Assembly (NCBI RefSeq): GCF_008017535.1 | Contig: NZ_VRUA01000002.1 | Location: 62,001 to 126,000, forward strand | Source: Ottowia flava | GTDB lineage: Bacteria; Pseudomonadota; Gammaproteobacteria; Burkholderiales; Burkholderiaceae_C | DNA: 64,000 nt | Reading direction: 5' to 3' | Shown: piece after piece, positions 1,122-60,767 of the stretch | Position numbering within the stretch: position 1 is the first letter of the stretch | How the letters are laid out: each line of letters starts with the position of its first letter | Position numbers and translations under genes: made by a program | Notes under the pieces: generated by a model | The model's database searches: none | The model's input: only the letters and a program-made list of their open reading frames with translations | Told to the model about the DNA's origin: nothing

Positions 1122-2330
1122 CTACCAGCGGCCCGCCTCCATCCGTATCGCCACTTCGCAATCGTCAAAGATTTCCAGCTTGGCGATCTTCACGCGCACG
1201 CCCAGCACGCCGTGCAAGCCCAGCAGGCGCTCGCACAGCTTGCCGATCAGCGATTCAAGCAGGTTGACGTGCTCGTCCGTGCATTCGTCGATGATGATCT
1301 GGCGCACCTTGCGGTAGTCCAGCACGTGGGTGATGTCGTCGTCGCGCGGGCGAAGCGGCTGCGGGCCGAGGTTCAGCTCGGCGTCAACCTGGATCGGCTG
1401 CGGCGCGGTTTTTTCCTCGTCGAGGATGCCCAGGCTGGCGTCAAAGCGCAGGCCGTTCAGCGTCAGCGTCTGGCCGCCGGCGGTGGCGTCGGCAGCCGCG
1501 TTCGCTTCTTTTTCAATAGCTGGCTGCGCAATCGGCTGTAGGGCCGGCGCCGCATTCATCATGGAAAAATCGCGTTCAAAGCGCACCAGGTGCTGGCCGC
1601 CGTCGACCAGCAGCGTGGCGCCGGTGAGCGAGCGGTTGCCCAGCGCAAACACCACCGTGGCGGCCACGTCCTCAGGCGTGGACGAGCGGCCCAACGGGCT
1701 CATGCGGTGCAGCTCGGCAAAGCGCTCGTCGCTCAGCAGATGGCTGGTCAGCGTCAGCCCAGGCGCAACGCCAACCACCCGCACGCGCGGCGCCAGGGCC
1801 TGCGCCAGCAGCGTGGTGGCGCTTTGCAGCGCGGCCTTGCTGAGGGTATAGCTCAAGAAGTCCGGGTTGGGGTTGAACAGCTTCTGGTCCAGCAGGTTGA
1901 CCACGCAGCCGGTGGCGGGCGGCGCATCGCGCGCATCCAGGTGCGCGGCCAGGGCCTGCGCCAGCAGCACGGGTGCGGCGGTGTTGGCGTGCAGATGCGC
2001 GTCGAGCAAGCGGGTGCTGAAGCTGGTGGCGTTGTCGAACTCGAACAGCGCGGCGCTGTTGACCACCGCGTCGACCGGGCCGAGCGCGGCGACCACACGC
2101 GGCAGCAGCGCGCGGGCTTGCGCCTCGTCCGCCAGATCGGCATCAAATGCGGCGCCAGCCGGCCCCAACTCTGCGCAGGCAGCTACGGTATCCAGAGCAT
2201 CCTGGCGCGATCGGTGGTAGTGCACGGCGACGCGCCAGCCGGCCGCAGCGCAAGCCAGCGCGATGGCGCGGCCCAGGCGCCGGCCAGCGCCGGTGACGAG
2301 CACGGTGCGGGAAAGGGCAGCGGTGTTCAA
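1122..2330 (-). CDS. Fusion of pteridine-reductase-like SDR (FolM type) with dihydroneopterin aldolase (FolB type)
   Basis: This is a 402-residue two-domain protein. Residues 10-255 are a short-chain dehydrogenase with the pteridine-reductase style cofactor motif TGAGRRLG near residue 13 and the catalytic YTLSK near residue 160. Residues 285-402 match the FolB/FolX fold (LTLNGLRFDASLGI, then HVNLLESL). Likely activities are reduction of dihydrofolate or dihydromonapterin and aldol cleavage or epimerisation of dihydroneopterin, in the cytoplasm. The start is uncertain: TTG at 2330 is chosen because the frame upstream runs into the divergent methyltransferase gene. The linker (about residues 261-274) is encoded by a dispersed-repeat copy. 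Whether relatives also carry the fusion is not known to me. Confidence 0.82.
   Translation of the reverse strand: MNTAALSRTVLVTGAGRRLGRAIALACAAAGWRVAVHYHRSRQDALDTVAACAELGPAGAAFDADLADEAQARALLPRVVAALGPVDAVVNSAALFEFDNATSFSTRLLDAHLHANTAAPVLLAQALAAHLDARDAPPATGCVVNLLDQKLFNPNPDFLSYTLSKAALQSATTLLAQALAPRVRVVGVAPGLTLTSHLLSDERFAELHRMSPLGRSSTPEDVAATVVFALGNRSLTGATLLVDGGQHLVRFERDFSMMNAAPALQPIAQPAIEKEANAAADATAGGQTLTLNGLRFDASLGILDEEKTAPQPIQVDAELNLGPQPLRPRDDDITHVLDYRKVRQIIIDECTDEHVNLLESLIGKLCERLLGLHGVLGVRVKIAKLEIFDDCEVAIRMEAGRW
1507..1546 (+). repeat. Dispersed repeat, copy 1 (inside the FolM-FolB gene)
   Basis: Contains AATAGCTGGCTGCGCA and GGCTGTAGGGCC, the two core blocks of the family. It lies exactly at the joint between the two enzyme domains and is read through in frame as linker sequence. 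Confidence 0.7.
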
Positions 2331-2344
2331 GGACAATCGGGGGT

Positions 2345-3577
2345 GTGAAAAAGACGGAATCCAGTGTAACCAGCGGCGCTGCGGCGAACGGCCTGGCGCA
2401 GCCTGCTGACGCATCGGCGCAGGCCGAGCTGACGGCGCGCATCGCCGACGCCATCCGCGCCGCCGGCGGCTGGATCGGCTTTGACCGCTTCATGCACCTG
2501 GCGCTGTACGCGCCGGGGCTGGGCTACTACGCGCACGGCTCGCGCAAGTTCGGCGCGCTGCCGGGTTCTGGCAGCGACTTCGTGACGGCTCCCGAGCTGT
2601 CGCCGCTGTTCGGCCGCGCGCTGGCCGGGCAGGTGGCCGAAAGCCTGCGCGCCACCGGCACCGACGCGGTGTGGGAGTTCGGCGCCGGCAGCGGCGCGCT
2701 GGCCGAGCAGCTGATCACCGGCCTGGCCGCGCTGGGCCAGCCGCTGGCGCGCTACACCATCGTCGATGTGTCCGGCAGCCTGCGCGCGCGCCAGCAAGAG
2801 CGCCTGGCGCCACTGCTGGCCGCGCACCCGGGTTTGCAGATCGACTGGGCCGATCGCCTGCCCGAGGCGCTGCGCGGCGTGGTGGTCGGCAACGAAGTGT
2901 TGGACGCCATGCCGGTGCAGCTGCTGGCGCGTGTGGACGGGCAGTGGATGGAGCGCGGCGTGGCGCTTTCAGATGCTTTTGAGGCCACAGCCCTACAACC
3001 ACGAGCGCAAGCAGCTACCGATTCAGTAGCACCCTTCGTCTGGTCCGACCGCCCGACCGAGCTGCGCCCGCCCTTTGATGTGGAAGGCGAACACGACTTT
3101 CTCACCGAAATCCACCTTCAGGCGCGTGCCTTCATCACCACGCTGGCCGAGGCGCTGGTGCGCGGCGGCGCGGGCGCGGCGTTCTTCATCGACTACGGCT
3201 TTCCCGAGGCCGAGTACTACCACCCGCAGCGCCACATGGGCACGCTGGTCTGCCACCGCGCGCACCAGGTCGACGACGACCCGCTGAGCGCCGTGGGCGC
3301 CAAGGACATCACCGCGCACGTCAACTTCACCGACGTGGCACTGGCCGCGCAGGACGCGGGGCTCGACGTGCTGGGCTACACCAGCCAGGCGCGTTTTTTG
3401 CTGAACTGCGGCATCGCCCAGGCCATGGAAGCGGCCGACCTGCCGACCCGCGCCAACGCCATGAAGCTGCTGACCGAGCACGAGATGGGCGAGCTGTTCA
3501 AGGTGATCGGCTTCGCCACGCCAGGGCACCCGGCGGCGCTGGGCTTTGCCGCGGGCGACCGCGTGCACCGGCTCTGA
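2345..3577 (+). CDS. MidA/NDUFAF7-type SAM-dependent methyltransferase (DUF185)
   Basis: The 410-residue protein has the family N terminus (IGFDRFMHLALYAPGLGYY near residues 45-65), the block DFVTAPELSPLFG, and the SAM-binding glycine motif EFGAGSGALAE near residue 110. Mitochondrial relatives methylate an arginine of a respiratory complex I subunit; the bacterial target is unknown to me. Start is GTG at 2345, which overlaps the divergent FolM-FolB 5' region; the next in-frame ATG would remove conserved residues. Residues about 207-228 are a low-complexity insert encoded by a dispersed-repeat copy. A DUF2905 gene follows after 3 bp. Confidence 0.88.
   Translation: MKKTESSVTSGAAANGLAQPADASAQAELTARIADAIRAAGGWIGFDRFMHLALYAPGLGYYAHGSRKFGALPGSGSDFVTAPELSPLFGRALAGQVAESLRATGTDAVWEFGAGSGALAEQLITGLAALGQPLARYTIVDVSGSLRARQQERLAPLLAAHPGLQIDWADRLPEALRGVVVGNEVLDAMPVQLLARVDGQWMERGVALSDAFEATALQPRAQAATDSVAPFVWSDRPTELRPPFDVEGEHDFLTEIHLQARAFITTLAEALVRGGAGAAFFIDYGFPEAEYYHPQRHMGTLVCHRAHQVDDDPLSAVGAKDITAHVNFTDVALAAQDAGLDVLGYTSQARFLLNCGIAQAMEAADLPTRANAMKLLTEHEMGELFKVIGFATPGHPAALGFAAGDRVHRL
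2966..3030 (-). repeat. Dispersed repeat, copy 2 (in frame inside the MidA-type methyltransferase gene)
   Basis: On the minus strand this reads GGTAGCTGCTTGCGC, GTGGTTGTAGGGCT, then GGCCTCAAAAG. It is one of the best-preserved copies, keeps the host gene open and adds an Ala/Gln-rich peptide of about 22 residues. Confidence 0.85.
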
Positions 3578-3580
3578 CCC

Positions 3581-3775
3581 ATGATCCGCTGGGTCATCGT
3601 CATCTTCCTGGCGCTGATGCTGATCAGCTGGTTCACGCCGTTTTTGAACAAGCTGGGCTTCGGCCGGCTGCCGGGCGACTTCCGCTTCAGGCTGTTCGGG
3701 CGCGAGTGGTTCATCCCGCTGACGACGACGCTGATCCTGAGCGGTGTGGCCAGCCTGATTGCGCGGCTGCTGTAG
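3581..3775 (+). CDS. DUF2905 small membrane protein
   Basis: A 64-residue protein with an N-terminal transmembrane helix (residues 2-20), the short conserved segment LGRLPGD-type (here GFGRLPGDFRF) in the middle and a second helix (residues 43-62). This matches the DUF2905 family in length and pattern. It begins 3 bp after the methyltransferase stop and is probably co-transcribed. Function is unknown. Confidence 0.85.
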   Translation: MIRWVIVIFLALMLISWFTPFLNKLGFGRLPGDFRFRLFGREWFIPLTTTLILSGVASLIARLL

Positions 3776-3799
3776 GCCCAGGCGACTTCAGCGAACTCA

Positions 3800-3854
3800 C
3801 TTTTCGATAGCTTCTTGCGCAGTTTGGGCAAGGGCTACAAGCCGATTTTCCTCA
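3800..3854 (+). repeat. Dispersed repeat, copy 3
   Basis: Reads CGATAGCTTCTTGCGCAG, then AAGGGCTACAAGCCGATTTT. It fills the space between the convergent DUF2905 and phospholipase-D-like genes and touches the stop codon of the latter. Confidence 0.7.
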
Positions 3855-5564
3855 CAACATTTCGTCAGGCGCCAACGGCCCCAGCAGCTGCAGCACCATG
3901 CGCAGGCCCAGGCTGGCGTCGGGCTCGCTGCGCGCGTCTTCGAAGGGCGCGTCCGGCGGCGCGCGCCAGCGCAGCTGGTCTTCGGCGGTGAGCTCCATCT
4001 TCCAGGCGCTGTCGTCCAGCGTGTCGTCGATCTTGGCGGTGGCCTCGCGCGACAGGGCCACGCTGCGCACGACCAGCGCGACCTCGGTGTTCTGCAGCTT
4101 GGAGCGCAGGTCGAGGTTCATCGAGCCGATGCTGATCACGCGCCCGTCGATGATGAATATCTTGGAATGTAGGCTGGCCTTGGAGCCGCCCGCGCCCGAG
4201 CCGAACACCGTGCGGTCGAGCTTGGCGCCCTGCAGCGCGCGCATCTCGTACAGCTCGACCCCCAGGCGGATCAGGTCCTTGCGGTAGCGCGCATAGCCCA
4301 CGTGGGCCAGCGGCGCGTCGTTGGACGCCAGCGAATTGGTCAGCACCCGCACGCGCACGCCGCGCGCGCGCATGGCGGCAAACACCTTCATCATCTCGGG
4401 CCCCGGCACGAAGTATGGCGAGACGATGAGCGCGTCGCGCCGGGCGCTTTGCATCAGCGCCAGCATGCCGTCGACCACGGTGTCGTCGGTGTGCTCGTCG
4501 TTCAATTCCGGCACGAGCTTGGAGGGCTTGTCCACCAGCAACAGCGCCGGCGCCCAGGTCAGCTGTAGCGTGTCCAGATCCATGGCCGGGGGCAGCAAGG
4601 GCGGGCCGACAGCGTCCGAAGGCGCGGACGCGGCCGCCTCGGGGCCGTGGTGGCCGTTGGCCGAGGGCGCTGAAGCGGTCTCCGCACCGGCGGCCCCGGC
4701 GGTCTGTGCGCCCGCGGTGGCCGACGCCGCCGGCCGGGCGGGAGCGGTCGAGTGGTACAGCGCGCGCAGCTCGTCCGGCGTGATGAGCGACTGCACCGGG
4801 TAGGCGAGCGGATTGTTCCAGTAGTTGTCGAAGCTGAGCGACATGGCCCGCACCACCGGGCCGACGGCGAGCACGTCCATGTCGACGAAATTGCTGCCGT
4901 CGGCGGTGCCGAAGTAGGAATCGCCCAGGTTGCGCCCCCCGGTGATGCCCCAGGCGTTGTCGGCGATGTACAGCTTGTTGTGCATGCGGTGCTGGATGCG
5001 CTTGAAGTCGCCCAGCGAACCCAGCGCCCGCAGCGCCCCTGCGCCGCGCCCGCCCGGCAGCGGGTTGAACATGCGCATCTCCACGTTGGGCAGAAAGGCC
5101 ATGGCCATGACCAGCGCGTTGCGGCCGGTGGAATTGAAGTCGTCCAGCAGGATGCGCACGCGCACCCCGCGCGCGGCGGCCGCGCGCACCGCGGTGAGCA
5201 GCTCGCGCGTGCTGGCGTCGGCGTGGATGGCGTAGTACTGGATGTCGAGCGTGCGGGCCGCGCGCTCGGTCAGCGCGAGGCGGCTGCTGTAGGCCTCGTT
5301 GGGCGAGCCGATCAGGGCAAACCCCGAATCGCCGTCCTGCTCGGCGCGCGCCGACGCTGGCCGCCGCGCATCGGCCAGCGCGCCCAGCGGCGTGCCCTGC
5401 GGCTGCGCCAGGGCGTGCGATTCGGGCCGCGCCACATCGGTCGGCAGGCTGCCGCAACCCGGCAAAGGCAAGAGCGCGACCAACAACGACGCCGTGCAGC
5501 CCAACCGACGCAGGAGTCCGCGCGGCTTGAGGGCTTGAGGTATCGGCGGGGTGAATGTCGTCAT
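3852..5564 (-). CDS. Phospholipase D-like / cardiolipin-synthase-like lipoprotein
   Basis: The 570-residue protein has a lipoprotein signal (lipobox LPGC near residue 37) and two HKD motifs: HNKLYIAD followed by GGRN near residue 193, and HSKIFIIDG followed by GSMN near residue 466. Two HKD motifs per chain are typical of the PLD superfamily, which cleaves or transfers phosphodiester-linked head groups via a phosphohistidine intermediate. An Ala/Pro/Ser-rich low-complexity insert occupies about residues 275-335 between the catalytic halves. The predicted outer-envelope location distinguishes it from inner-membrane cardiolipin synthase, so the substrate is open. It is transcribed alone, convergent with the DUF2905 gene. 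Confidence 0.87.
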   Translation of the reverse strand: MTTFTPPIPQALKPRGLLRRLGCTASLLVALLPLPGCGSLPTDVARPESHALAQPQGTPLGALADARRPASARAEQDGDSGFALIGSPNEAYSSRLALTERAARTLDIQYYAIHADASTRELLTAVRAAAARGVRVRILLDDFNSTGRNALVMAMAFLPNVEMRMFNPLPGGRGAGALRALGSLGDFKRIQHRMHNKLYIADNAWGITGGRNLGDSYFGTADGSNFVDMDVLAVGPVVRAMSLSFDNYWNNPLAYPVQSLITPDELRALYHSTAPARPAASATAGAQTAGAAGAETASAPSANGHHGPEAAASAPSDAVGPPLLPPAMDLDTLQLTWAPALLLVDKPSKLVPELNDEHTDDTVVDGMLALMQSARRDALIVSPYFVPGPEMMKVFAAMRARGVRVRVLTNSLASNDAPLAHVGYARYRKDLIRLGVELYEMRALQGAKLDRTVFGSGAGGSKASLHSKIFIIDGRVISIGSMNLDLRSKLQNTEVALVVRSVALSREATAKIDDTLDDSAWKMELTAEDQLRWRAPPDAPFEDARSEPDASLGLRMVLQLLGPLAPDEML

Positions 5565-5675
5565 CGCACGTCCGGTGAATGGCAGGCAGAAATCATAGTC
5601 AGCGCCCTGCGCCGCAGCTGTCGGACGACGGCCTCACCTGCGCTGCGAAAGCGCGCCCGAGGTCGGCCAGACAGC

Positions 5676-5700
5676 AAAAAACCGCCCGAGGGCGGCCTTT
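5676..5700 (-). terminator. Rho-independent terminator of the yegP-like gene
   Basis: On the minus strand GGCCGCCC-TC-GGGCGG is followed by six T. It lies about 35 bp beyond the stop codon at 5734. Confidence 0.8.
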
Positions 5701-5733
5701 CGAGGTGAGTGCGCGCTTCGAACGCCCAGCTGA

Positions 5734-6069
5734 TCAGGCCGTCTGGTCGTCCACGCTGGCGGCGGGTGCGTTGGTCACGCACGACTGGATGCCGTTGTCG
5801 CGGGCCGATTCGCTGGAATACATCTGGCTCTGGCCGATGACCTGACCATTGCCGGCCTTGAGCGTGAAATACGGCGAGCCATCCTTGGCGACCAGCTTCT
5901 CGTAACGGGCTGCGTCGCCACCGTTCTTCTTGACCGATTCGATGCCGTTGACCGCGCTGGCCTTGGCTTCGTACATCTCGCTGGTGAGGATGGTCTGACC
6001 GTTGCCGGCCAGCAGGGAGAAATGGAACTTGTCGTTCTTGGACTTCTTCAGTTCAAACTTGCCTGCCAT
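5734..6069 (-). CDS. YegP-family DUF1508 protein
   Basis: A 111-residue soluble protein made of two copies of the DUF1508 unit: GKFELKKSKNDKFHFSL... and GSPYFTLKAGNGQVIGQSQ..., each with the pattern AGNGQ-I-S-MY and a later NGI. The start at 6069 is preferred over upstream frames because AAGGAG sits 5 bp before it. Members are small, abundant proteins of unknown function, sometimes linked to stress. A C-terminal Ala/Ser-rich tail ends the chain. It is monocistronic, with a clear terminator downstream. The 142 bp up to rodA show nothing else. Confidence 0.88.
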   Translation of the reverse strand: MAGKFELKKSKNDKFHFSLLAGNGQTILTSEMYEAKASAVNGIESVKKNGGDAARYEKLVAKDGSPYFTLKAGNGQVIGQSQMYSSESARDNGIQSCVTNAPAASVDDQTA

Positions 6070-8050: not shown

Positions 8051-8110
8051 GTGCTCTTTCTGAGAATGTGCCGCGCAAAAGCCCTCTCGCAGGGTCTGTT
8101 CAGCACATCT

Positions 8111-8167
8111 TTTTTGATAGCTGCCCGCGCGACACAGGCGCCGCTTTCAGCCACTTTTATTCAAATC
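8111..8167 (+). repeat. Dispersed repeat, copy 4
   Basis: Begins TTTTTGATAGCTGCCCGCGC and ends TTTTATTCAAATC; the middle is diverged. It lies in the 174-bp gap between the esterase and cytochrome b561 genes. Confidence 0.65.
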
Positions 8168-8224
8168 AACCCGGCAACGTGGTACCTGCGCGCCACCGAA
8201 GCCGTCTGCCTGCAAGGAACCTCA

Positions 8225-12743: not shown

Positions 12744-12813
12744 ATTGAATTTTCACAAAGAATCGCCCTCCAGCCCTAGCCCGAATTGCGCAGCCAGCTA
12801 TAATTTTTGCAGC
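12744..12813 (-). repeat. Dispersed repeat, copy 6
   Basis: On the minus strand: ATTATAGCTGGCTGCGCA, CTAGGGCTGGAGGGCGATT, then a tail ending GAAAATTCAA. It fills the mtgA-ruvC gap and reaches to the ruvC start codon. Confidence 0.75.
12799..12804 (+). promoter_or_regulatory. TATAAT -10 box for ruvC, inside repeat copy 6
   Basis: A perfect TATAAT lies 10 bp upstream of the ruvC ATG, formed by the edge of the repeat. No good -35 is visible at 16-18 bp, and a start so close would give a leaderless or near-leaderless mRNA. Confidence 0.35.
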
Positions 12814-12814
12814 A

Positions 12815-14563: not shown

Positions 14564-14629
14564 GGGGCCGATTTTACGGCTTTGCCTACCCGCCGTGCGC
14601 TTCAGAGGCCAGTGAGTCGGCATCCAGAA

Positions 14630-14693
14630 TTCATGCTTCAAATTGGCCGTGTGCGCATATGGGTAGTGCGCGAGCAGCTTCTCTATTCATAGC
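14630..14693 (-). repeat. Dispersed repeat, copy 8
   Basis: On the minus strand it opens GCTATGAATAGAGAAGCTGC and ends GGCCAATTTGAAGCATGAA; the centre is diverged. It lies between ftsZ and lpxC, directly after the ftsZ terminator. Confidence 0.65.
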
Positions 14694-14722
14694 AAAACGC
14701 TGCACGGGGTGACCGTGCAGCG
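14694..14722 (-). terminator. Rho-independent terminator of ftsZ
   Basis: On the minus strand CGCTGCACGG and CCGTGCAGCG form a 10-bp stem around a short loop, followed by TTTTG. It lies about 55 bp after the ftsZ stop, so lpxC probably depends partly on its own promoter. Confidence 0.8.
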
Positions 14723-25668: not shown

Positions 25669-27070
25669 GGGCGCCCTCCGGGGTGACTCCGTCGGCGGCC
25701 GACAGCGCCTCGACCACCCGCTCCATCCGCATGAAACGGGACCCCTTGACCCCCACGCTCGCCGACTGCGCCAGCAGCGTGCGCACAGCGTCGTTCAGCG
25801 CTTCGATGGTCTCGAAATGAAGGCCACCGCCAAAAGCCATGGCCGCGTGGATCGCCATGGGGCCATGCGCAAGCAGCCGCTCGACACCGCGCTCGCGCGC
25901 GTAGGCGCCGACCTCGGCGTGGAACTCGGGGCCTTGGCCGCCCACCTCGCCCATGTCTCCCAGCACCAGCAGGCGCGGACCGGGCAGCTCGGCCAGGACA
26001 TCGACAATGGCGCGCACCGAGTCGGGGTTGGCGTTGTACGTGTCGTCGATCAGCGTGATGCTGCGGCCACGATGCCGGATGATCGCCGTGCGCGAGCGGC
26101 CCTTCACCGGCACAAAAGTCGTGAGACCTTGCGCCATGGCATCGACAGGCACGCCCGCTGCCGTGCAACACGCGAGCGCAGCCAGCGCGTTGCGCAAATT
26201 ATGACGCCCCGCCACATACAGATCGAATGCCACATCACCGGCCGGCGTGGCGGCCACGGCCTGCCAGCGGTCTCCTTGCCAAGCGCTGGCGCGCAAGCTC
26301 ACGCTCCCAGAATGCTCTCCAAACAATAGCTGCAAGCGCCCTTCTGACATGGATTTCCAAACGTTTTCATACTCATCTTCGGCCGGGAAGATCGCGCAGC
26401 CATCGGCATGAAGCGCACGAAATACCGACCCGTTCTCGCGCGCTACCGCCTCCACCGTGGCCATGAACTCCTGGTGCTCACGCTGCGCGTTGTTGACCAA
26501 ACCCACCGTCGGCTCGGCGACCGACGCCAGATAGGCGATCTCGCCCGGGTGGTTCATGCCCAGCTCGACCACCGCCACGCGGTGGTGCGCACGCAGCCGC
26601 AAAAGCGTCAGGGGCAGGCCGATATCGTTGTTGAAGTTGCCCTGCGTGGCCAGCGCATCGTCGCCACGCCAGGCATGAAGGATCGACGCAATCATCTGCG
26701 TCACCGTGGTCTTGCCGTTGCTCCCCGTCACGGCAATCAGCGGCCCTTCAAAGCGCCGGCGCCATTGCCGGGCCAAATCGCCCAACGCGAGGCGCGCATC
26801 GGCAACCAGCACCCCTGGCAGCCCGCTGGCCAGCAGCCTGTCGGCCGCGGCTTCCGCACACAGCACGGCCGTCGCCCCCTGGGCCACCGCCTCGGCCATG
26901 AAGTCGGCGGCATCGAAGCGCTCGCCCTTCAGCGCCACGAACAGATCGCCCGCCTGCAAGCTGCGCGTATCCGTGTGCACACGCTGCACCAGCGCGGCTC
27001 CGCTGCCCACCACACGGGCGCCCGGCAGCCATGCGGCAACCTGCTCCAGAGAAAGCGCCATGCCGCTCAT
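25658..27070 (-). CDS. murF: UDP-MurNAc-tripeptide-D-Ala-D-Ala ligase MurF
   Basis: The 470-residue Mur ligase has [16 protein letters not shown] near residue 115, [12 protein letters not shown] near residue 165 and [18 protein letters not shown] near residue 340. It adds the terminal dipeptide. ATG 27070 overlaps the murE stop as ATGA; a long upstream extension lies within murE and is rejected. A diverged dispersed-repeat copy is read in frame around residues 236-252. Confidence 0.95.
26316..26363 (+). repeat. Dispersed repeat, copy 11 (inside murF)
   Basis: Contains AACAATAGCTGCAAGCGC and a diverged second half ending GATTTCCAAACG. It is antisense to murF and read through in frame. Confidence 0.5.
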
Positions 27071-28572
27071 GCGCCTGCGCCTTTCCCAGCGGCGCGCGCG
27101 GTGAAGGCGCGCTGCACCTGATCGACGTCCGAGAACGGCAGGCGCTGGCCGCGCACTTCCTGGTAGGTCTCGTGGCCTTTTCCTGCCACCAGCACCACAT
27201 CCTGCGCATTCGCGGCACACATGGTTGAGAGGATGGCCTGGGCTCGGTCCAGCTCGACCTGCACCGCGCCTGGCGCGCTCAGTCCCACCAGCATCTGTTC
27301 GACGATGGTCTCCGGCGCTTCGTCGCGCGGATTGTCGCTGGTGATCACCAGGCGGTCGGCAGCGCCTTCAGCCGCTGCGGCCATCAGCGGGCGCTTGCCG
27401 GCGTCGCGGTTGCCCCCGCAGCCGAACACGCACCACAGCCTGCCGCCACGCGCCAGCGCGAGTGGGCGCAAGGCAGCAAGCGCCTTGGCCAGCGCGTCAG
27501 GCGTGTGCGCGTAATCGACCACCGCCATGGGCGCTCCGGGCGCATCCAGGCGCTCCAGGCGACCCGGCACCGGCAGCAAGACCTGACAGGCGGCCGCCGC
27601 GTCCGCCAGGGGCACGTCCAAAGCACGCAGCACCCCCAGCACGCCCATCAGGTTGCTGGCGTTGTAGTCCCCGATCAGGGGCGTCGTGACCGTGACGGTT
27701 TGCTCACCTTCACGCACCCGCCACTGCAAGCCCTCAGGCCCGTACCGCAGGTCAAGCGCCTGCAGCCGCGCCGCCTGACGCAGCGAAACTGTCCAGACGT
27801 CCAACCCGCGCTGTTCGGCCAACTCGACCAGTTCTGGGCCCCGCGGATCGTCGATGTTGATCACGGCCGCGCGCAGACCGGGCCAGCGGAACAGGTCTGC
27901 CTTGGACTCCCAATAGGCCTGCATGCTGCCGTGGTAATCCAGATGGTCCTGCGTGAAATTGGTGAACACCGCCACGCGGATCGCCATGCCATCCAGACGG
28001 TGCTCGGCGATGCCGATCGAGGACGCTTCGATGGCGCAGCTGCGCACGCCCGCATCGACAAAGTCGCGCAGGCGGCGCTGCAGCAACACGGGGTCCGGCG
28101 TGGTCATGCCGGTGGCTTCCACGACTGGCGCCACACCAATACCCAAAGTGCCCACCAGCGCGCATGGGGAAAGCGCCGGCAGCTCCAATTTCGAGAGCAG
28201 ATTGGACAACCACCACGCAGTCGATGTCTTGCCATTGGTGCCCGTAACAGCCACCATGTTCAGCGCGCGCGACGGGTGCTCGTAGTAAGCGTCGGCCACC
28301 AGGCCGGTGGCGGTCTTGAGTTGGGGGTACACAGCGATGGCCGGGTCGTCAAAGCCAAACGCGCCTGCGCCCTCGCGCTCCACCAGACAGGCCTGCGCGC
28401 CCTGAGCCAGCGCCGCGCCGACAAAGTGGCGACCATCGGTCGCCGCACCCGGCCAGGCTATAAAGCCATCGCCCGCACGCACCTGGCGGCTGTCGGCGTG
28501 CAACTGCCCCGTGACGCGCGAGCGCAGCCAGCGGGCCGCTTCCTGCGGGGTATCAAGCGTGGGCAGCGTCAT
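27067..28572 (-). CDS. murE: UDP-MurNAc-L-Ala-D-Glu-diaminopimelate ligase MurE
   Basis: The 501-residue Mur ligase has [16 protein letters not shown] near residue 108, NFTQDHLDYHGSM near residue 200 and the diaminopimelate-recognising motif SDNPRDEAPE near residue 412. It adds meso-diaminopimelate, made from the product of DapF (encoded at 40.4 kb). It starts one base after the ftsI stop. Confidence 0.96.
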   Translation of the reverse strand: MTLPTLDTPQEAARWLRSRVTGQLHADSRQVRAGDGFIAWPGAATDGRHFVGAALAQGAQACLVEREGAGAFGFDDPAIAVYPQLKTATGLVADAYYEHPSRALNMVAVTGTNGKTSTAWWLSNLLSKLELPALSPCALVGTLGIGVAPVVEATGMTTPDPVLLQRRLRDFVDAGVRSCAIEASSIGIAEHRLDGMAIRVAVFTNFTQDHLDYHGSMQAYWESKADLFRWPGLRAAVINIDDPRGPELVELAEQRGLDVWTVSLRQAARLQALDLRYGPEGLQWRVREGEQTVTVTTPLIGDYNASNLMGVLGVLRALDVPLADAAAACQVLLPVPGRLERLDAPGAPMAVVDYAHTPDALAKALAALRPLALARGGRLWCVFGCGGNRDAGKRPLMAAAAEGAADRLVITSDNPRDEAPETIVEQMLVGLSAPGAVQVELDRAQAILSTMCAANAQDVVLVAGKGHETYQEVRGQRLPFSDVDQVQRAFTARAAGKGAGA

Positions 28573-33758: not shown

Positions 33759-33777
33759 GAAGTATTTATGCCAAATA

Positions 33778-33826
33778 GGGCTGCAGCGCTACAACCATCT
33801 GCGCGAGCAGCTATGTTAAAAATAGC
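33778..33826 (-). repeat. Dispersed repeat, copy 12 (between hslV and hslU)
   Basis: On the minus strand: ACATAGCTGCTCGCGCAG, ATGGTTGTAGCGCTGCAGCCC. It lies inside an operon, in the space between two genes whose products form one complex. Confidence 0.8.
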
Positions 33827-33847
33827 AACCTGAGCGACCGCTCGAGG

Positions 33848-38295: not shown

Positions 38296-38429
38296 GGGCG
38301 GGTCTGCGCGCCGCCAGCCGTGCGGCCGGGCGCGCCAAAGGCATTGAAAACACACAGTGTAGCCATTGGGCATGACCGCAGCAGGCGGGTGCAGCGATGG
38401 CCTTATCGGCTTACCCGCACCGGCCCATC

Positions 38430-38496
38430 GCTATGCTTTTTCTAGCTGTCAGCGCAATCTGCTATAGGGCCAGATGTCGATTTCTCTTGAAATTTT
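38430..38496 (+). repeat. Dispersed repeat, copy 13
   Basis: Reads TTTTTCTAGCTGTCAGCGCA, CTATAGGGCCAGATGTCGA, then TTTCTCTTGAAATTTT. It is a full-length copy in the 233-bp gap between the CobW gene and the end of xerC. Confidence 0.85.
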
Positions 38497-41930: not shown

Positions 41931-41996
41931 GTTGCTCTGCATTTGATAGCTGTTTGCGCTGACGCACCAAGGGCTGAATGGCAGTTTTCAACCCAA
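41931..41996 (+). repeat. Dispersed repeat, copy 16
   Basis: Reads ATTTGATAGCTGTTTGCGCT, CAAGGGCTGAATGGC, then AGTTTTCAACCC. It lies between the convergent AhpD-fold and AadA-like genes. Confidence 0.8.
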
Positions 41997-42038
41997 CGCT
42001 GAAGCCTTCAACGCACGGCAGCGCCCCAAGGCACGACG

Positions 42039-44561: not shown

Positions 44562-44629
44562 CAGCTATTCAATCGATAGCTTCATGCGTGCGCCAATGAA
44601 GCGCCTGCGAATGATTTCTCTTTGAATTC
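44562..44629 (+). repeat. Dispersed repeat, copy 18
   Basis: Contains AATCGATAGCTTCATGCGTG and ends GATTTCTCTTTGAATTC; the centre is diverged. It lies downstream of the TOPRIM gene; the 247-bp gap shows no other feature. Confidence 0.65.
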
Positions 44630-54212: not shown

Positions 54213-54236
54213 TGCCGAAGGCCCCTTGGCCGAGCC

Positions 54237-55637: not shown

Positions 55638-55674
55638 GGGGCGCGATTATCCGGGCGGCGCCCCAGCCGGGCGC

Positions 55675-56124: not shown

Positions 56125-56168
56125 TTTCGGCTATCGTGCGCTCGTCAAAAATGAATTCAGGAGTATGC

Positions 56169-56702
56169 ATGAGCTTGAAGAACCAACTGCTGCGGGCCTT
56201 GGCCGCGCTGGCCGTGGCGCACGCCGCCCTGTGGGCGACCAGCGCGGCGCAGGCGCAAAACAATTCGCGCGAGGCAGCCGAAGCCGTGCGCAAGCACCGT
56301 GCCGAACAAGGCGCCTCGGCGCGACAGGCCAAGCCCGCGCCCGAGCCTGCCCGGAAGTCCTGGCGCGGTGACGCGTACCGCTCCGGCGCCAATCCCAATG
56401 CCGACCCGCGCGCCAGCCTCAAGAGCTGCATGGACCACTCGGGCATGAACATGGCCGCGCGCGACCGCTGCATGCGCCAACACTGCGAAGGCCGCTGGGG
56501 CCAGGGCGATTGCCCGAACCAGGGCGGTGACCTGCTTGACCGCTCGGGCGCCAACGACCGCACCCCGCTGGGCCGCTGCCTGAAGGAAGCCGGCGCCAAC
56601 CCGTTCAAGCGCGACGGCTGCGGCTGGCGCCACTGCAACAACAAGTGGGACACGCCCGAATGCGCCGCGATCAAACCGCGCGGCACCCCTTCGGCCCAGT
56701 GA
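56169..56702 (+). CDS. Periplasmic protein with two copies of a cysteine motif
   Basis: A 177-residue secreted protein with a signal peptide (about residues 1-30, ending SAAQAQ) and a basic linker. The C-terminal half holds two 30-residue units of identical spacing, C-x4-G-x-N-x3-RD-x-C-x3-HC-x3-W-x4-C (one starting at SCMDHSGMN, one at RCLKEAGAN), eight Cys in all. ATG 56169 has AGGAG 5 bp upstream. I do not recognise the family; paired Cys and His suggest disulfides or metal binding. Confidence 0.75.
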   Translation: MSLKNQLLRALAALAVAHAALWATSAAQAQNNSREAAEAVRKHRAEQGASARQAKPAPEPARKSWRGDAYRSGANPNADPRASLKSCMDHSGMNMAARDRCMRQHCEGRWGQGDCPNQGGDLLDRSGANDRTPLGRCLKEAGANPFKRDGCGWRHCNNKWDTPECAAIKPRGTPSAQ

Positions 56703-56728
56703 CGCAGGCGGGGCGCCAAGCCCCGCGC

Positions 56729-57766
56729 TCAGTGCCGATGGGCGTGGCCCAGCCCCATCGGCACCGTGCCTTCGTCGGTGGGCGCCGCTTCGCCCAGCTC
56801 GGTCAGCGGCTCCACCCCCAGCGGCAGCAGCTGAATGCTGACCTGCAGGCCAGGCACCGCGTCCAGCAAGGCCTGCTCGACGCGCGCACGCATCGCCGCG
56901 GCACGGCCCAGGCTCCAGTCGGCCGGCAGGTGGAGGTGCATGCTCAGGAAATGGCGCTGGCCGGCGCGGCGCGACAGCACATGGTCGATGCGCACCGGGT
57001 TGGCGTGGCCGGGCGCCGTGACGCCCCCTGCCCCGGTGGCGCGCGCGACATTGCCAGGGCTGTCACCTGACGGTTGCAAAAAGCCCGCCAGCACCGCATC
57101 GACCTTGGCCTGCACCTGCGGCTCGGCCGCGGCGTCCATCAGGCCTTGCGACGAGCGCCAGATCAGCCGCCCGCCCTCGCGCAGGATGTTGAGCGCCACG
57201 CCGATCGCCACCAGCGGGTCCAGCCACAACCAGCCAGTCAGCCCCGCCAGCACCAGGCCGATGACGACACCGGCCGAGGTCCAGACATCGGTCAGCAGGT
57301 GCTTGGCATCGGCTTCCAGCGCGATGGAGCGGTGCGTGCGCGATGCGCGCAGCATGATCCAGGCGAGCACGCCGTTCAGCACCGAACTGGCGACCGACAG
57401 CGCCATGCCCCAACCCAGTTGCTCCAGCGGCTGCGGGTGCCAGAAGCGCGGCAGTGCCGCCCAGACGATGGCGGCGGCCGCACCGAGGATCAGGATGCCC
57501 TCGAAGCCGGACGAAAAATACTCCGCCTTGCTGTGGCCGAACGGGTGGTCCTCGTCGGCCGGGCGCGCGGCCACAGTGACCATCCACAGCCCGAACACGG
57601 CGGCCGCCAGGTTGACGAAGGACTCCAGCGCGTCGGACAGCAGGCCGACCGAGCCGGTCAGCCACCAGGCCAGCGTCTTGAGCGCGATGGTCAGCAGCGC
57701 GACCACCACGGACACGCCCATCAGGCGGGCGGGTGTGATCCAGCGACGAAGCGATTCGATGGGCAT
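56729..57766 (-). CDS. Cation diffusion facilitator metal exporter
   Basis: The 345-residue CDF protein has six helices with the zinc-site pairs in LLSDALESFVN (helix 2, HxxxD replaced by SDALE-S) and EADAKHLLTDVWTS (helix 5: His and Asp), and the motif DEDHPFGHSKAEYF in the loop. The cytoplasmic domain carries an insert (about residues 240-262) rich in Gly/Ala, and the C terminus ends GLGHAHRH, a possible metal-binding tail. It should export Zn, Fe or similar ions. Confidence 0.88.
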   Translation of the reverse strand: MPIESLRRWITPARLMGVSVVVALLTIALKTLAWWLTGSVGLLSDALESFVNLAAAVFGLWMVTVAARPADEDHPFGHSKAEYFSSGFEGILILGAAAAIVWAALPRFWHPQPLEQLGWGMALSVASSVLNGVLAWIMLRASRTHRSIALEADAKHLLTDVWTSAGVVIGLVLAGLTGWLWLDPLVAIGVALNILREGGRLIWRSSQGLMDAAAEPQVQAKVDAVLAGFLQPSGDSPGNVARATGAGGVTAPGHANPVRIDHVLSRRAGQRHFLSMHLHLPADWSLGRAAAMRARVEQALLDAVPGLQVSIQLLPLGVEPLTELGEAAPTDEGTVPMGLGHAHRH

Positions 57767-57816
57767 GGGCCGATTGTCGGGCGGGCGCGCACGCCAACCC
57801 TTGCGCCAGGCTTAGC

Positions 57817-57880
57817 AAGTTCCTTACAAGCCGCTAACCCTTGACAGATCTGCGCAAGCAGCTCCTGATACCAGAGCAAA
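57817..57880 (-). repeat. Dispersed repeat, copy 25
   Basis: On the minus strand: CAGGAGCTGCTTGCGCAGAT, AAGGGTTAGCGGC, tail TTGTAAGGAACTT. It lies upstream of the CDF gene in a 241-bp gap with no other feature. Confidence 0.7.
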
Positions 57881-58007
57881 TACCCGCACAGCAGCGCTCT
57901 GAACGCGCCTGAGTCGCATTCCCCAGGCGGCTGTGCGCGGGCCGACTGAGACTGCGCCCGGCGCGCGGCGGCAGGTGCGCCACCTCGCGGGCACCGCCGA
58001 CGGCGTC

Positions 58008-58919
58008 TCAGGCACCGGTCAACGCGTACAGGCCATCGGCCTCTAGCCGCACCTCGCCAGCGTCGACCAGGCCGTCCAGGTGCTGCGCGATGGTGCGCCG
58101 CTCGGCCGGAAAGACCCAGGGCACGGCCGCGCCGGGCGGGTACAGCACGCCGCGCCGCGCCAAATCGTCCAGCGTGTGCGGGCGCTCGCGCAGGTAGCCG
58201 ATCAGCTGATCGTCGTGTTCGGCGATGCGGGTGGCAAAACGGTCCAGCGCGCGCACGAATTCGGCGCGGTCGGTCAGCACGCCCTTGTGGTGCGAGGTGA
58301 CCCACACGCGCGCGTCCAGCTCGCGCACGCGCTGGAGGCTTTGCTGAAACAGCACCAGGCTGGACGTGGCGTCGCCGTAGTACGGGCCAAAGCCGGTCAA
58401 ATCGATGTCGCCGATGAAGGCGACGCCTTCGCTTTCTTCCACCAGTGCGCAGTGGCCAGACGTGTGGCCAGGCAGGTGGTGCGCGCGCACGCGCACGCCG
58501 CCGCCCAGCTCCCACACGGCACCGTCGGCGTAGGCGGTGGCGTCGGGCCGCGGCACCCAGTGGTGGCTGCGTTCGATGAAGGGGCGCAGCTCGGTCATCA
58601 CCTCGGGCGTGTAGCCGTAGTGCGCGCACAGGCCTTCCCACGATTGAGCCGCCGCCAGATCGGCCGCGTGCACCTGCACCGGCGTATGCGGGACGCGGTG
58701 CAGGCCGGCGGTGTGGTCTTCGTGCACGTGGCCGAGGATGACCAGGTCGGCCTCGTCGAACTCGGGCCCGATGCGGTTGGCGACCAGCGGCGTGTCGAAC
58801 GCCACGCGCATGTCCGCGCCCTGGACGATGACCTGGTTGCCGTCCGGGTGCTTGCCCGACTTGTCGCCAAAGTGTACGGCCACCGGGCCGAAGCGCTGAA
58901 CAGGAGGTGCCGTCTGCAT
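58008..58919 (-). CDS. MBL-fold metallo-hydrolase
   Basis: The 303-residue protein has the metallo-beta-lactamase signature LGHVHEDHTAG near residue 77 (HxHxDH), HHLPGHTSGHCAL near residue 165 and GDIDLTGFG near residue 187, with a helical C-terminal winged domain (LDDLARRGVL). The fold is common to glyoxalase II-like and thioester hydrolases; the substrate is unknown. ATG 58919 is two bases from the open frame of the divergent kinase gene and fits the family; a longer frame overlaps that gene. Confidence 0.88.
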   Translation of the reverse strand: MQTAPPVQRFGPVAVHFGDKSGKHPDGNQVIVQGADMRVAFDTPLVANRIGPEFDEADLVILGHVHEDHTAGLHRVPHTPVQVHAADLAAAQSWEGLCAHYGYTPEVMTELRPFIERSHHWVPRPDATAYADGAVWELGGGVRVRAHHLPGHTSGHCALVEESEGVAFIGDIDLTGFGPYYGDATSSLVLFQQSLQRVRELDARVWVTSHHKGVLTDRAEFVRALDRFATRIAEHDDQLIGYLRERPHTLDDLARRGVLYPPGAAVPWVFPAERRTIAQHLDGLVDAGEVRLEADGLYALTGA

Positions 58920-59004
58920 CTTGGGTATCGTAGCGGCGGTGCCGCGCAGCGCGCACCGCCTGCGCGACACCGCTGCCCTCACGCCCCCCATCCCCCTACC
59001 CGCC

Positions 59005-60006
59005 ATGACGCTCGACATCGCCCAATCCACCCCCACCGCCGCCGCGATGGCGCGCTGGGTGGAGCGCGCCTGGGACCTGGGGCCGGTGGTCGGGGGCGAA
59101 TTCCTGCGGCGCAGCTTCAACCAGGTCTACCGGATCGACTTCGCCAGCGGCCAGCGCGCGGTGGCGCGCCTGTCGTCCGAACGGCCGCGCGGGCCAGCCA
59201 ACACCGCGTTTGAAGCCGCGCTGCACCAACACCTGGCGGCGCAAGGCTGCCCGGTGGTGCGCTGCCTGCCGGCGCGCGGCGGCGCCCACGCGGTCGACGT
59301 GCCGCTGCCCGAAGGCCCGCGTCCGCTGATGCTGTTCGACTATGTGGAAGGCGACTTCACCGGCGAAGCTCCTGAAGACATCGCCGCTTTCGCGCGCGGG
59401 CTGGCGGCACTGCACGCGGCCGGCGCGTCGTACGCCGGGCCGCCCAGCCGCTACGCGCTGGAGTTGCCCGACCTGCTGGACCGCCCGCTGCAAGACCTGC
59501 TGCGCGCGCCGACGATGCTGCCCGAACTGCGCCCTGGCTTCGAGGCCGCGGCCGAGCGCCTGCGCGCACGCCTATCGGCGTTGGAGCCCCTGACCCGGGT
59601 GATGGGCCACGGCGACGCGCACGGTGAAAACAACTTCATGCGCACCAACGCGCAAGGTGAGCCCGAGGCGGTGTTCTTCGACTTCGACGAAGCCGGCCCC
59701 GGCTGCCTGGCGTACGAGCTGGCCATCTACCCCTGGTCCATGTTCCCGCGCATGCCCGACACCGCGCCGAGCGAACGGGTGCTGGCGCGCTGGCGCAGCT
59801 TCATCGACGCGTACCGCGCAGTGCGCCCTTTGAGCGCGGCCGACCAGGCCGCCATCGCCCCCTTCATGGCCGTGCGCCAGTTCTGGCTGCTGGGCGAATA
59901 CGCCGGCCGCGTGCCGGTCTGGGGGTCGCAAGCCATGCCGACCATGTACCTGCGCAAGCAGCTGGGCCTGCTGGCGCAGTGGGAGGCGCTGGAACTGCCG
60001 TTCTGA
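59005..60006 (+). CDS. APH-fold phosphotransferase
   Basis: The 333-residue protein has an aminoglycoside phosphotransferase/choline kinase fold: the nucleotide loop GGEFLRRSFNQVYRID near residue 28, the catalytic loop VMGHGDAHGENNFM near residue 203 (HGDxxxxN) and the metal motif FFDFDEAGPG near residue 227. Members phosphorylate small hydroxyl compounds or stress-linked Ser/Thr targets. Substrate unknown; ATG 59005 chosen, upstream extension to 58921 not conserved. Confidence 0.87.
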   Translation: MTLDIAQSTPTAAAMARWVERAWDLGPVVGGEFLRRSFNQVYRIDFASGQRAVARLSSERPRGPANTAFEAALHQHLAAQGCPVVRCLPARGGAHAVDVPLPEGPRPLMLFDYVEGDFTGEAPEDIAAFARGLAALHAAGASYAGPPSRYALELPDLLDRPLQDLLRAPTMLPELRPGFEAAAERLRARLSALEPLTRVMGHGDAHGENNFMRTNAQGEPEAVFFDFDEAGPGCLAYELAIYPWSMFPRMPDTAPSERVLARWRSFIDAYRAVRPLSAADQAAIAPFMAVRQFWLLGEYAGRVPVWGSQAMPTMYLRKQLGLLAQWEALELPF

Positions 60007-60072
60007 GGCGCACGGCGCGGGCGTCAACAACGTTCGGCGTTCGCTTGGATGGTGCGTGTGGCCGCTTCAATC

Positions 60073-60137
60073 GCTACTGATTTCGCAGCTGTCCGCACAG
60101 ATCACTGTAGGGCCAACGGCCGATTTTGCTTGAAACT
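60073..60137 (+). repeat. Dispersed repeat, copy 26
   Basis: Reads GCTACTGATTTCGCAGCTG, CCGCACAGATCACTGTAGGG, CCAACGGCCGATTTTGCTTG, then AAACT. With copy 27 it is the best-preserved; the two share an identical GTAGGGCCAACGGCCGATTT block. Confidence 0.9.
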
Positions 60138-60158
60138 CCGAGAACGCTTTGCTCTGCC

Positions 60159-60710
60159 TCAACCCAGCACATCGCCTGGCGCAAAGCTCGCCTCGGGCGC
60201 CAGACCGAACGCCGTGGGGTAGCGCAGCGCGCCGCGCGCCGCCTGGTCGCCGAACGCCAGCGCCTGCACGTGGTCCGCGTACGCCGCCGGCAGGCCCGGC
60301 AAGCCAAGGTCGGGCGACGCGGCGAAGCCAAAGCGCGCGTAGTAGGCCGGGTCGCCCAGCAGCACCGCGCCCGCCGCGCCCTGCGCCCGCAACGCCGCCA
60401 GCGCGGCCTGCACCAGCGCCTGTCCCACGCCCTGGCGCTGCCAGCGCGGATCGACCGCCAGCGGGCCCAGCCCGAACCAGCGGCCGGGCGAGCCCGACAG
60501 CCGCACCGGCGATGCGGCGACGTAGCCAACGCAAGCGCCCGCGCGCACGGCCAGCAGGGACAGGGTGAGCGCGCCGTCCCGCCGCAGCGCACGCACGGTG
60601 CGGGCTTCGCTCTGGTCGCTGTGGGGCACACCAGCGAAGGCGGCGCCGAGCACGTCGTCGATCGCGGGCGCGTCACCGCGCGCTTCGGGGCGGATCTCGG
60701 TTGCTATCAA
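60159..60710 (-). CDS. GNAT N-acetyltransferase
   Basis: A 183-residue GCN5-related acetyltransferase: EIRPEARGDAPAIDDVL, LGPLAVDPRWQRQGVGQALV (acetyl-CoA motif A, R-Q-G-V-G) near residue 85 and LLGDPAYYARFGF near residue 117. Substrate unknown. The start is uncertain: TTG 60710 lies at the edge of repeat copy 27, and the frame stays open through the repeat to 60746. Confidence 0.85.
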   Translation of the reverse strand: MIATEIRPEARGDAPAIDDVLGAAFAGVPHSDQSEARTVRALRRDGALTLSLLAVRAGACVGYVAASPVRLSGSPGRWFGLGPLAVDPRWQRQGVGQALVQAALAALRAQGAAGAVLLGDPAYYARFGFAASPDLGLPGLPAAYADHVQALAFGDQAARGALRYPTAFGLAPEASFAPGDVLG

Positions 60711-60767
60711 CGCCGTAGCTGCTTGCGCAGGTGGTTGTAGGGCCAACGGCCGATTTGGCTTGAAACT
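60700..60767 (+). repeat. Dispersed repeat, copy 27 (overlaps the GNAT gene start)
   Basis: Reads GCCGTAGCTGCTTGCGCAGG, TGGTTGTAGGGCCAACGGCC, GATTTGGCTTGAAACT. It supplies the N-terminal coding or leader region of the acetyltransferase gene. Confidence 0.9.

What the first reader, a model, noticed from the sequence alone, without database searches (positions are those of the whole stretch)
1507..60767. A dispersed 50-70 bp repeat with about 27 copies in 64 kb
The same element recurs in both orientations: a T-rich edge, TAGCTGCTTGCGCAG, GGTTGTAGGGC, GGCCGATTT and an A-rich edge. The best copies are 2, 7, 12, 13, 21, 26 and 27. It is not a transposon end pair: no tpase is nearby, copies stand singly and are diverged. 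The density (about one per 2.4 kb) makes it the dominant non-coding signal here. It could be a non-autonomous mobile element, an mRNA-processing or termination signal, or a binding site for a nucleoid protein. I do not know a published name for it.
Basis: partly seen in the sequence, partly recalled or inferred. Interest (0 to 1): 0.75.

Follow-up and report, generated by a model that had tools for sequence, protein, structure and literature searches.

The report
Genome-wide DNA tag resembling uptake signals
This bacterium's chromosome carries a 66-letter DNA tag about every three thousand letters; related species hold the tag at many of the same places but in their own spelling, as if it marked DNA as "self", and it may be the unknown signal that lets these bacteria take up DNA of their own kind.

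Summary
The repeat is real: 28 window copies (26 above 25 bits), about 0.33 per kb, extrapolating to about 1,400 in the 4.12-Mb genome. A matrix trained elsewhere finds 67 sites in 200 held-out kb against 0 in 1 Mb of random sequence. It is an ungapped 66-bp double-stranded motif: CT, A/T tract, ATAGCTG, GCGC, variable centre, GSGC, RGCC, A/T tract, AAA.

It does not look like an inserted element. No two of 154 copies exceed 85% identity. Window sites are occupied in three congeners at 20/20, 13/15 and 13/15 testable places (chance 0.11-0.12), including inside murE, without element-sized insertions. Nor does it look like an RNA hairpin or terminator. Species spell the interior differently, also at shared sites. 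Coding copies favour two of six frames.

These are hallmarks of DNA uptake signals. Selective transformation is reported in this family (Acidovorax temperans, Verminephrobacter), with no signal named in the passages I saw. My leading reading is an uptake-signal-like self tag (0.5), function untested; the main rival is a chromosome-organising protein site. Competence-gene presence did not discriminate. Pieces in the same register were published in 2017 as unexplained motif pairs in Acidovorax ebreus and Polaromonas naphthalenivorans; I found no account joining them or giving a function.

The parts
1503..1568 (+). copy, 59 bits; inside a minus-strand CDS
2134..2199 (-). copy, 46 bits; in CDS
2966..3031 (-). 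copy, 55 bits; in CDS
3794..3859 (+). copy, 54 bits; between convergent genes
8104..8169 (+). weak copy, 16 bits
9955..10020 (-). copy, 38 bits; in CDS
12749..12814 (-). copy, 66 bits
13360..13425 (-). copy, 70 bits; between convergent genes
14629..14694 (-). copy, 46 bits
20681..20746 (-). copy, 54 bits; in the 3' part of a CDS of the cell-wall gene cluster (murG-like, name recalled from its position, not searched)
26313..26378 (+). copy, 31 bits; in a CDS of the cell-wall cluster (murF-like, name recalled from its position, not searched)
28134..28199 (-). copy, 26 bits; in murE, over a conserved stretch
33762..33827 (-). best window copy, 76 bits; between the gene upstream of hslU (hslV-like, recalled from position) and hslU
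38429..38494 (+). copy, 61 bits
39500..39565 (+). copy, 47 bits
40752..40817 (+). copy, 50 bits; in a CDS (dapF-like, name recalled from its peptide, not searched)
41933..41998 (+). copy, 49 bits
42866..42931 (+). copy, 56 bits
44135..44200 (+). weak copy, 10 bits; in CDS
44563..44628 (+). copy, 42 bits
49512..49577 (-). copy, 49 bits
51494..51559 (+). copy, 61 bits
52568..52633 (+). copy, 26 bits
54023..54088 (+). copy, 29 bits
54147..54212 (+). copy, 41 bits
57813..57878 (-). copy, 48 bits
60072..60137 (+). copy, 64 bits
60702..60767 (+). copy, 68 bits

Best explanation
A genome-wide self-recognition tag on double-stranded DNA that works like the DNA uptake sequences of Neisseriaceae (DUS) and Pasteurellaceae (USS). 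Proposed mechanism: a surface DNA receptor of the type IV pilus uptake machinery recognises the 66-bp site (constant skeleton RCT / A-T tract / ATAGCT, species-specific interior, A-T tracts that help bending). DNA carrying the resident spelling is taken up and recombined preferentially, so better-matching alleles spread at existing places by base substitution, and a change of receptor specificity re-spells the sites in place. Shown here: many copies, dsDNA-type motif, in-place evolution without element-sized insertion at the sites tested, occupancy at orthologous sites, dialects, strong core consensus, preferred coding frames. Inferred: binding protein, uptake function and the drive.
For: (1) Not insertions: window sites are occupied in three congeners at 20/20, 13/15 and 13/15 places testable by both flanks, where random stretches of the same length would be occupied at 0.11-0.12. 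At 7 of 8 coding sites compared as proteins there is no element-sized insertion; the eighth is a length-variable linker. This is the kind of test by which USS were shown to arise by mutation (PMC1626085, abstract and passages). (2) No two of 154 copies above 85% identity; column conservation very uneven, chi2 1845 on 65 df. (3) Perfect TAGCT-n4-GCGC cores 116 (4 in random), one-mismatch cores 267 (232): the excess is larger for perfect cores, a USS hallmark; for an 11-base core the two excesses are about equal, 74 (1) and 96 (20). (4) Of 36 strong copies wholly inside CDS, 28 use two of six frames. (5) No strand bias: 84/72 on C1, 31/30 in tandem gaps. Spacing more even than placement into the same gaps (CV 0.78 against 0.92; 2.3% of 1000 simulations as low). 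(6) Species-specific interiors under a constant skeleton in congeners (own GCGCAG..TAGSGC; G013 GCGCTTG-n5-CAAGCGC; G262 CAGGAT..GCCGGC) and in other genera, also at the shared hslU site; compare DUS dialects (PMC3630211, passages). (7) A/T tracts swap AAA and TTT as blocks, as expected of a dsDNA property; USS have AT segments. (8) In this family Acidovorax temperans was transformed only by same-species DNA, and Verminephrobacter eiseniae takes up DNA selectively and needs type IV pili; no signal is named in the passages seen (PMC4212676).
Against: No uptake or binding data. Much longer than known signals: 66 bp and about 55 bits, where 12.6 would locate the sites (copies ascertained with the same matrix). 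The outer parts are relaxed (64% mean match). Strongly intergenic, above all between convergent genes (2.56 per kb against 0.11 in CDS). ComEC (26 of 29 congeners) and GspH-type pilins (27 of 29) are present with or without the element; ComEA matches (25 of 29) all stayed under the family's cut-off. No receptor found. Congener G268 has longer dyads, one at a place empty in the window. In other congeners fewer own sites are shared: same-strand copies at 3 of 4 (G262), 2 of 6 (G254), 1 of 3 (G251), 1 of 4 (G265), 1 of 4 (G268), 0 of 7 (G274), 0 of 4 (G272). Copy-poor stretches hold accessory-looking but also housekeeping genes. Three Comamonadaceae plasmid pieces (131 kb) show no clear copy, but the spelling of those hosts' chromosomes is unknown.
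Confidence: 0.5

Rival explanations
1. Binding site of an unknown nucleoid or chromosome-organising protein (dimer or tetramer) that packages or spaces the chromosome.
For: Dyad-symmetric consensus with little covariation fits a symmetric protein complex: register i+j=74 pairs best (0.373 own, 0.474 relatives) but equals the independence expectation (0.374, 0.484). A/T tracts; even spacing; lowest intergenic density in divergent (promoter) gaps.
Against: Interior spelling changes between congeners while many sites stay, unexpected for a housekeeping binder; information far above what location needs; no strand pattern on contig C1.
Confidence: 0.22
2. Relic of an ancient palindromic mobile element (MITE or REP-like, perhaps once served by the RAYT-like transposase) that spread early and whose copies were later kept for some DNA-level role.
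For: High information content suggests common descent; palindromic dialects; long dyads and a copy at a place empty in the window in G268; dialect-specific amplification would also give species spellings. A copy lies directly downstream of the RAYT-like gene in all 4 genomes examined, and in the own genome a second one, in inverted orientation, about 0.7 kb on its other side.
Against: Orthologous occupancy with changed spelling; in-place sites in murE and other CDS; no near-identical copies. Immediately around the transposase domain lies a different inverted repeat (GGGGTCAGA/TCTGACCCC); 107 of 252 gaps of at least 66 bp hold a copy, so a neighbouring copy is unremarkable; congener G253 has 481 core matches but no Y1_Tnp hit, while element-poor G274 has one.
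Confidence: 0.15
3. RNA-level signal: bidirectional terminator, 3'-end stabiliser or processing site.
For: 36 of 50 convergent gaps of at least 66 bp hold a copy; some dialects give stronger stems (G013, 40 copies, mean fold z -1.07).
Against: The best 60 of 154 own copies fold no better than shuffles (mean z -0.15; other strand -0.36) or control intergenic DNA (-0.51); no convincing long-range covariation (weak exceptions 26-48 in own, 30-44 and 31-43 in relatives); tandem-gap copies 31 against 30 by strand and 41 of 154 centres in CDS; TTTT in columns 56-63 in only 37 of 154; one copy sits between the hslV-like gene and hslU.
Confidence: 0.07

Closest known systems
Motif pairs ATAGCT(N)22CAAAAG (Polaromonas naphthalenivorans, 125 copies) and GCTTAT(N)5AAGCG (Acidovorax ebreus, 114 copies), Tong et al. 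2017, PMC5217627 (abstract, passages and sections 13 and 14 read)
   Same: By spacing they fall exactly in register: columns 18-23 and 46-51, and columns 30-35 and 41-45 (arithmetic; their genomes were not searched). Mostly intergenic, often convergent, no function given. Rhodoferax ferrireducens had the most motif pairs of their genomes (140).
   Different: Reported as two separate pairs; the whole 66-bp element, dialects, shared sites and an uptake reading are not in the sections read. Their supplementary tables were not available.
Pasteurellaceae uptake signal sequence (USS), PMC1626085 (abstract, passages) and PMC7811141 (passages)
   Same: Core plus A/T tracts, thousand-scale copies, arises by mutation not insertion, strong core, type-specific variants.
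   Different: 9-bp core, about 31 bp in all, about one per kb, uptake proven; here 66 bp, about one per 3 kb, uptake untested.
Neisseriaceae DUS dialects, PMC3630211 (abstract and passages)
   Same: Species dialects around an invariant short core, high copy number, dyad forms in some genomes.
   Different: 10-12 bp, receptor ComP known, no flanking motifs; no evident sequence resemblance.
BRE, Betaproteobacterial repeat (Hot et al. 2011, PMC3110155, abstract and passages)
   Same: Dispersed repeat in Bordetella and Comamonadaceae, mostly intergenic, some in CDS.
   Different: About 90 bp, 69% GC, at most 29 per genome, tandem arrays at some loci; here 66 bp, 52% GC, about 1,400 copies by extrapolation, mostly single. 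BRE letters were not available, so no direct alignment.
REP/RAYT elements (features recalled)
   Same: Dispersed intergenic palindromes; a RAYT-like gene is present and has element copies nearby.
   Different: Another inverted repeat lies closest to the transposase domain; the element evolves in place in coding genes.

Membership tests
DNA uptake sequence (DUS/USS) | Hundreds to thousands of dispersed copies in both orientations | tested here: met
   154 strong copies in 464 kb; 620 against 47 genome-wide for the core word
DNA uptake sequence (DUS/USS) | Copies arise by base substitution, not insertion | tested here: met
   one of 8 coding sites (1503-1568) is length-variable and undecided
DNA uptake sequence (DUS/USS) | Perfect cores outnumber singly mismatched ones | tested here: met
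   above random: 9-base core +112 perfect, +35 one-mismatch; 11-base core +73 and +76, about equal
DNA uptake sequence (DUS/USS) | Taxon-specific dialects | tested here: met
DNA uptake sequence (DUS/USS) | Concentrated in core genes, absent from recently acquired DNA | tested here: inconclusive
   20 proteins from the six largest C1 deserts: TctC receptors, Wadjet-like SMC genes, a DDE transposase, a glycosyltransferase, but also sigma-70, FeoB and argininosuccinate-lyase types; no matched comparison
DNA uptake sequence (DUS/USS) | Short signal (10-12 bp, or about 31 bp with A/T tracts) | tested here: not met
   about 66 conserved columns
DNA uptake sequence (DUS/USS) | Fragments carrying it are taken up preferentially; cognate receptor | not testable with these tools
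   ComEC and GspH presence does not discriminate
REP/RAYT element | Repeat flanks the RAYT transposase gene | tested here: inconclusive
   element copies lie downstream (4 of 4 genomes) and, in the own genome, about 0.7 kb upstream in inverted orientation, but another inverted repeat is closer and neighbouring copies are common anywhere
REP/RAYT element | Hairpin kept by covarying stem | tested here: not met
MITE / Correia-like element | Insertion with empty sites; near-identical copies | tested here: not met
   target duplications not tested
Intrinsic terminator | Stable hairpin plus T-run, oriented with transcription | tested here: not met
Any Rfam 15 family | Match above gathering score | tested here: not met
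   0 matches in the window
BRE | About 90 bp, GC-rich, few copies, tandem arrays | tested here: not met
   sequences not compared

The most novel reading that the evidence does not exclude
A third, independently evolved DNA uptake signal system, in Comamonadaceae and some relatives: a 66-bp dyad signal with a constant skeleton and fast-changing interiors, so that each species spells its own self tag and re-spells more than a thousand sites in place when its receptor changes. It would be the unknown determinant of species-limited transformation in Acidovorax and Verminephrobacter.
Probability: 0.45. Interest if true: 0.88.

Novelty: new variant of a known kind. Interest (0 to 1): 0.75.

Why it matters
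In the papers seen, genome-wide uptake signals are described only for Neisseriaceae and Pasteurellaceae. A candidate in a large environmental family, with a ready set of dialects among congeners, makes a reported but unexplained observation (species-limited transformation in Acidovorax and Verminephrobacter) directly testable, and would show what a long, partly symmetric uptake signal looks like. If it is a chromosome-organising site instead, a thousand-copy site that changes its spelling between congeners is just as unexplained. It also joins two orphan motif pairs from 2017 into one element.

Tried and rejected
RNA structure: mutual information and Watson-Crick excess over all column pairs and a register scan found symmetry with little covariation; folding found nothing in own copies. 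Rfam: nothing. REP/RAYT: a RAYT-like gene exists with element copies nearby but has another repeat closer to it; weakened, not excluded. Competence genes as a discriminator: ComEC, ComEA, GspH give no contrast. 'Element-poor' congeners judged by the core word TAGCTGnnnGCGC were partly mis-scored: G262 and G265 turned out to use other spellings, so presence should be judged by RCT-n9-ATAGCT. A first family survey with TAGCTGnnnGCGCA was patchy for the same reason. With the skeleton pattern 38 of 126 genera (first sampled genome each; at least 50 matches and twice the control; 23 of 126 at 100 and four times) are positive (counted). Outside the family 3 of 138 genomes of the class pass, the strongest 131 against 48 (hand count, not followed up). 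Blastn of one copy against plasmids gave 19 weak matches. Word counting in copy-poor congeners showed little by itself. Literature: the sequence word found nothing; Comamonadaceae with 'intergenic repeat' or 'DNA uptake sequence' found nothing; a REP query led to BRE; led to the Verminephrobacter paper; a general repeat query listed nothing relevant among 20 of 413; ATAGCTGC with Acidovorax gave one listing, not opened; led to the 2017 motif-pair paper. Dropped before counts: copies at or under 25 bits (30 of 184) (matrix); lower-scoring copies in the folding test (60 of 154 used). Mended on re-check: the RAYT-like gene does have element copies on both sides in the own genome, so the relic rival was raised from 0.13 to 0.15.

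Full report
WHERE IT IS. The window is G000:C12:62001-126000 of a 4.12-Mb genome in 53 contigs, 66.7% GC. hslU in the window is closest, among the 80 loci kept from a capped scan, to a MAG (86%), then Comamonas and Variovorax (78-79%). The MAG of locus L009 has the same counts as congener G265, so it appears to be the same genome; no genus name was obtained. I call the group Comamonadaceae-like by those matches.

THE OBSERVATION. An iterated ungapped matrix finds 184 copies in 464 kb, 28 in the window, at a threshold leaving about 2 in random sequence. Held-out validation: 67 sites above 10 bits in 200 kb, none in 1 Mb of random sequence. At 154 strong copies per 464 kb the genome should hold about 1,400 (extrapolated). 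Copies mostly stand singly, on both strands.

ANATOMY. Columns 5-70 of the alignment: TGCT, an A/T tract (13-15), ATAGCTG (18-24), GCGC (28-31), a variable centre, GSGC (43-46), RGCC (51-54), A/T tract (56-59), AAA (67-69). Conservation is very uneven (0.30 to 1.00), not the even decay expected of dead repeat copies. In congeners G131, G210 and G013 the right half mirrors the left, giving a 66-bp dyad often found on both strands at one place. The two arms pair hardly better within a copy than between copies, so the symmetry looks like that of a double-stranded site. Weak exceptions were pair 26-48 in the own genome (z 2.7) and pairs 30-44 and 31-43 in relatives (z 3.8, 2.5). The strongest column correlations are between neighbours or near neighbours; in the A/T tracts AAA and TTT replace each other as blocks.

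CONTEXT. With a simple codon-usage gene caller of mine (approximate starts) the centres of 154 strong copies fall 40 in convergent gaps, 61 in tandem gaps, 12 in divergent gaps, 41 in CDS; per kb 2.56, 1.35, 0.57 and 0.11. Of gaps of at least 66 bp, 36 of 50 convergent, 59 of 145 tandem and 12 of 57 divergent hold a copy. Tandem-gap copies show no strand preference (31 against 30). Thirty-six strong copies lie entirely within CDS; 28 of them use two of six frames, with peptides such as AQAA and RADGSRAEG. Spacing is more even than random placement into the same gaps. One copy sits between the gene before hslU and hslU itself.

NOT AN INSERTED ELEMENT. Of 26 strong window copies, both flanks could be placed in G131 for 20, in G210 for 15 and in G013 for 15; a copy is present at 20, 13 and 13 of these, against a chance occupancy of 0.11-0.12 for stretches of the same length (two own copies share one G131 copy, and some matches are weak or reported on the other strand because of the dyad). 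Eight coding sites were compared as proteins. None but the length-variable linker at 1503-1568 shows anything like a 22-residue insertion; gaps of one to five residues occur at some. At murE the site lies over a conserved stretch. Genomes without the element there (G268, G272, G274) encode the same stretch in ordinary codons (read by eye), and own and foreign gap lengths differ by 2 to 6 bases, not 66. The two solved MurE-type chains shown align there with gaps of about four residues. No two copies of 154 exceed 85% identity.

DIALECTS. The skeleton RCT-n9-ATAGCT is shared but the interior is species-specific: own GCGCAGrTGGTTGTAGSGC, G013 GCGCTTG-n5-CAAGCGC, G262 CAGGAT..GCCGGC, G188 GCGCA..TGCCGGC, G057 CCGCGATATTCTATTGG, and others. 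At the hslU site the spelling is that of the resident genome in own, G131, G210, G013 and G262; G268 has a CAGGA-type copy there rather than its own long dyad; G265, G251, G254, G272 and G274 show none by my pattern (G251 a degenerate trace). Own sites testable in these seven further congeners carry a same-strand copy at 3 of 4 (G262), 2 of 6 (G254), 1 of 3 (G251), 1 of 4 (G265), 1 of 4 (G268), 0 of 7 (G274) and 0 of 4 (G272). Counts in 29 congeners are bimodal with the core word, partly because of spelling.

DISTRIBUTION. With the skeleton pattern 38 of 126 genera of the family sample pass my threshold and 3 of 138 genomes from other families of the class (hand count). Among 17 named genomes: a MAG of the own genus (530 against 8), a betaproteobacterial MAG (216 against 26) and a Rhodoferax MAG (101 against 20) are positive; an uncultured Comamonas (72 against 40) and Comamonas sp. 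NoAH (60 against 49) are weak; the other 12, among them Variovorax, Ramlibacter, Pseudorhodoferax, Ideonella, Roseateles and Paraburkholderia, stay under 50.

WHAT IT MOST LIKELY IS. A thousand-copy, double-stranded, in-place-evolving, species-spelled tag is what uptake sequences look like. For USS the no-insertion test was decisive, and strong cores, A/T tracts and type-specific spellings are described; for DUS, dialects. For the nine-base core the excess of perfect copies exceeds that of one-mismatch copies. Family members A. temperans and V. eiseniae show selective transformation with no signal named in the passages I saw. Against: length, intergenic bias, no receptor, no contrast in competence genes. 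I therefore call it uptake-signal-like, not a DUS, at 0.5. The strongest rival is a chromosome-organising protein site. A mobile relic is next: a RAYT-like gene has element copies nearby, though another inverted repeat is closer to it. An RNA signal is least likely.

PRIOR ART. Tong et al. 2017 (sections 13 and 14 read) list two unexplained motif pairs in Polaromonas and Acidovorax that fall in exact register with this element, with the same convergent-gap bias. BRE differs in length, GC and copy number. My searches listed no paper that I could see describing the whole element or assigning a function; most subscription papers and all preprints were not searchable, and listings beyond the rows shown were not seen.

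Noticed in passing
L189-L192 (congener G268): About 100-bp AT-rich dyads built on ATAGCTAT..TTGCCAAT..TATGTGTTT half-sites, a much longer form of the same skeleton; one lies just downstream of hslU where the window has no copy.
   Followed up: partly
L208:3890-4684 (own genome C23): RAYT-like Y1 transposase whose domain is flanked by inverted GGGGTCAGA/TCTGACCCC repeats; Y1_Tnp matches in 21 of 29 congeners.
   Followed up: partly
L097:6310-12018 (own contig C1): Wadjet-like JetA/SMC defence genes inside a 12-kb stretch without strong element copies.
   Followed up: no
G013 genome: 20 Y1_Tnp matches, several with identical scores (IS200-like), against 0 to 5 in the other congeners.
   Followed up: no
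L189-L192 (G268): Another abundant repeat around GTCATTCCCGCG (9-mers 13-18 times in 80 kb, about 1 or fewer expected).
   Followed up: no
L197-L199 (G254): Overrepresented TCGGGCTTC/GGGCTTCGG words, a possible repeat of its own.
   Followed up: no
G276 (uncultured Comamonas): Some facing pairs of TAGCTGnnnGCGC at a fixed 65-bp offset, i.e. near-symmetric dyads.
   Followed up: no
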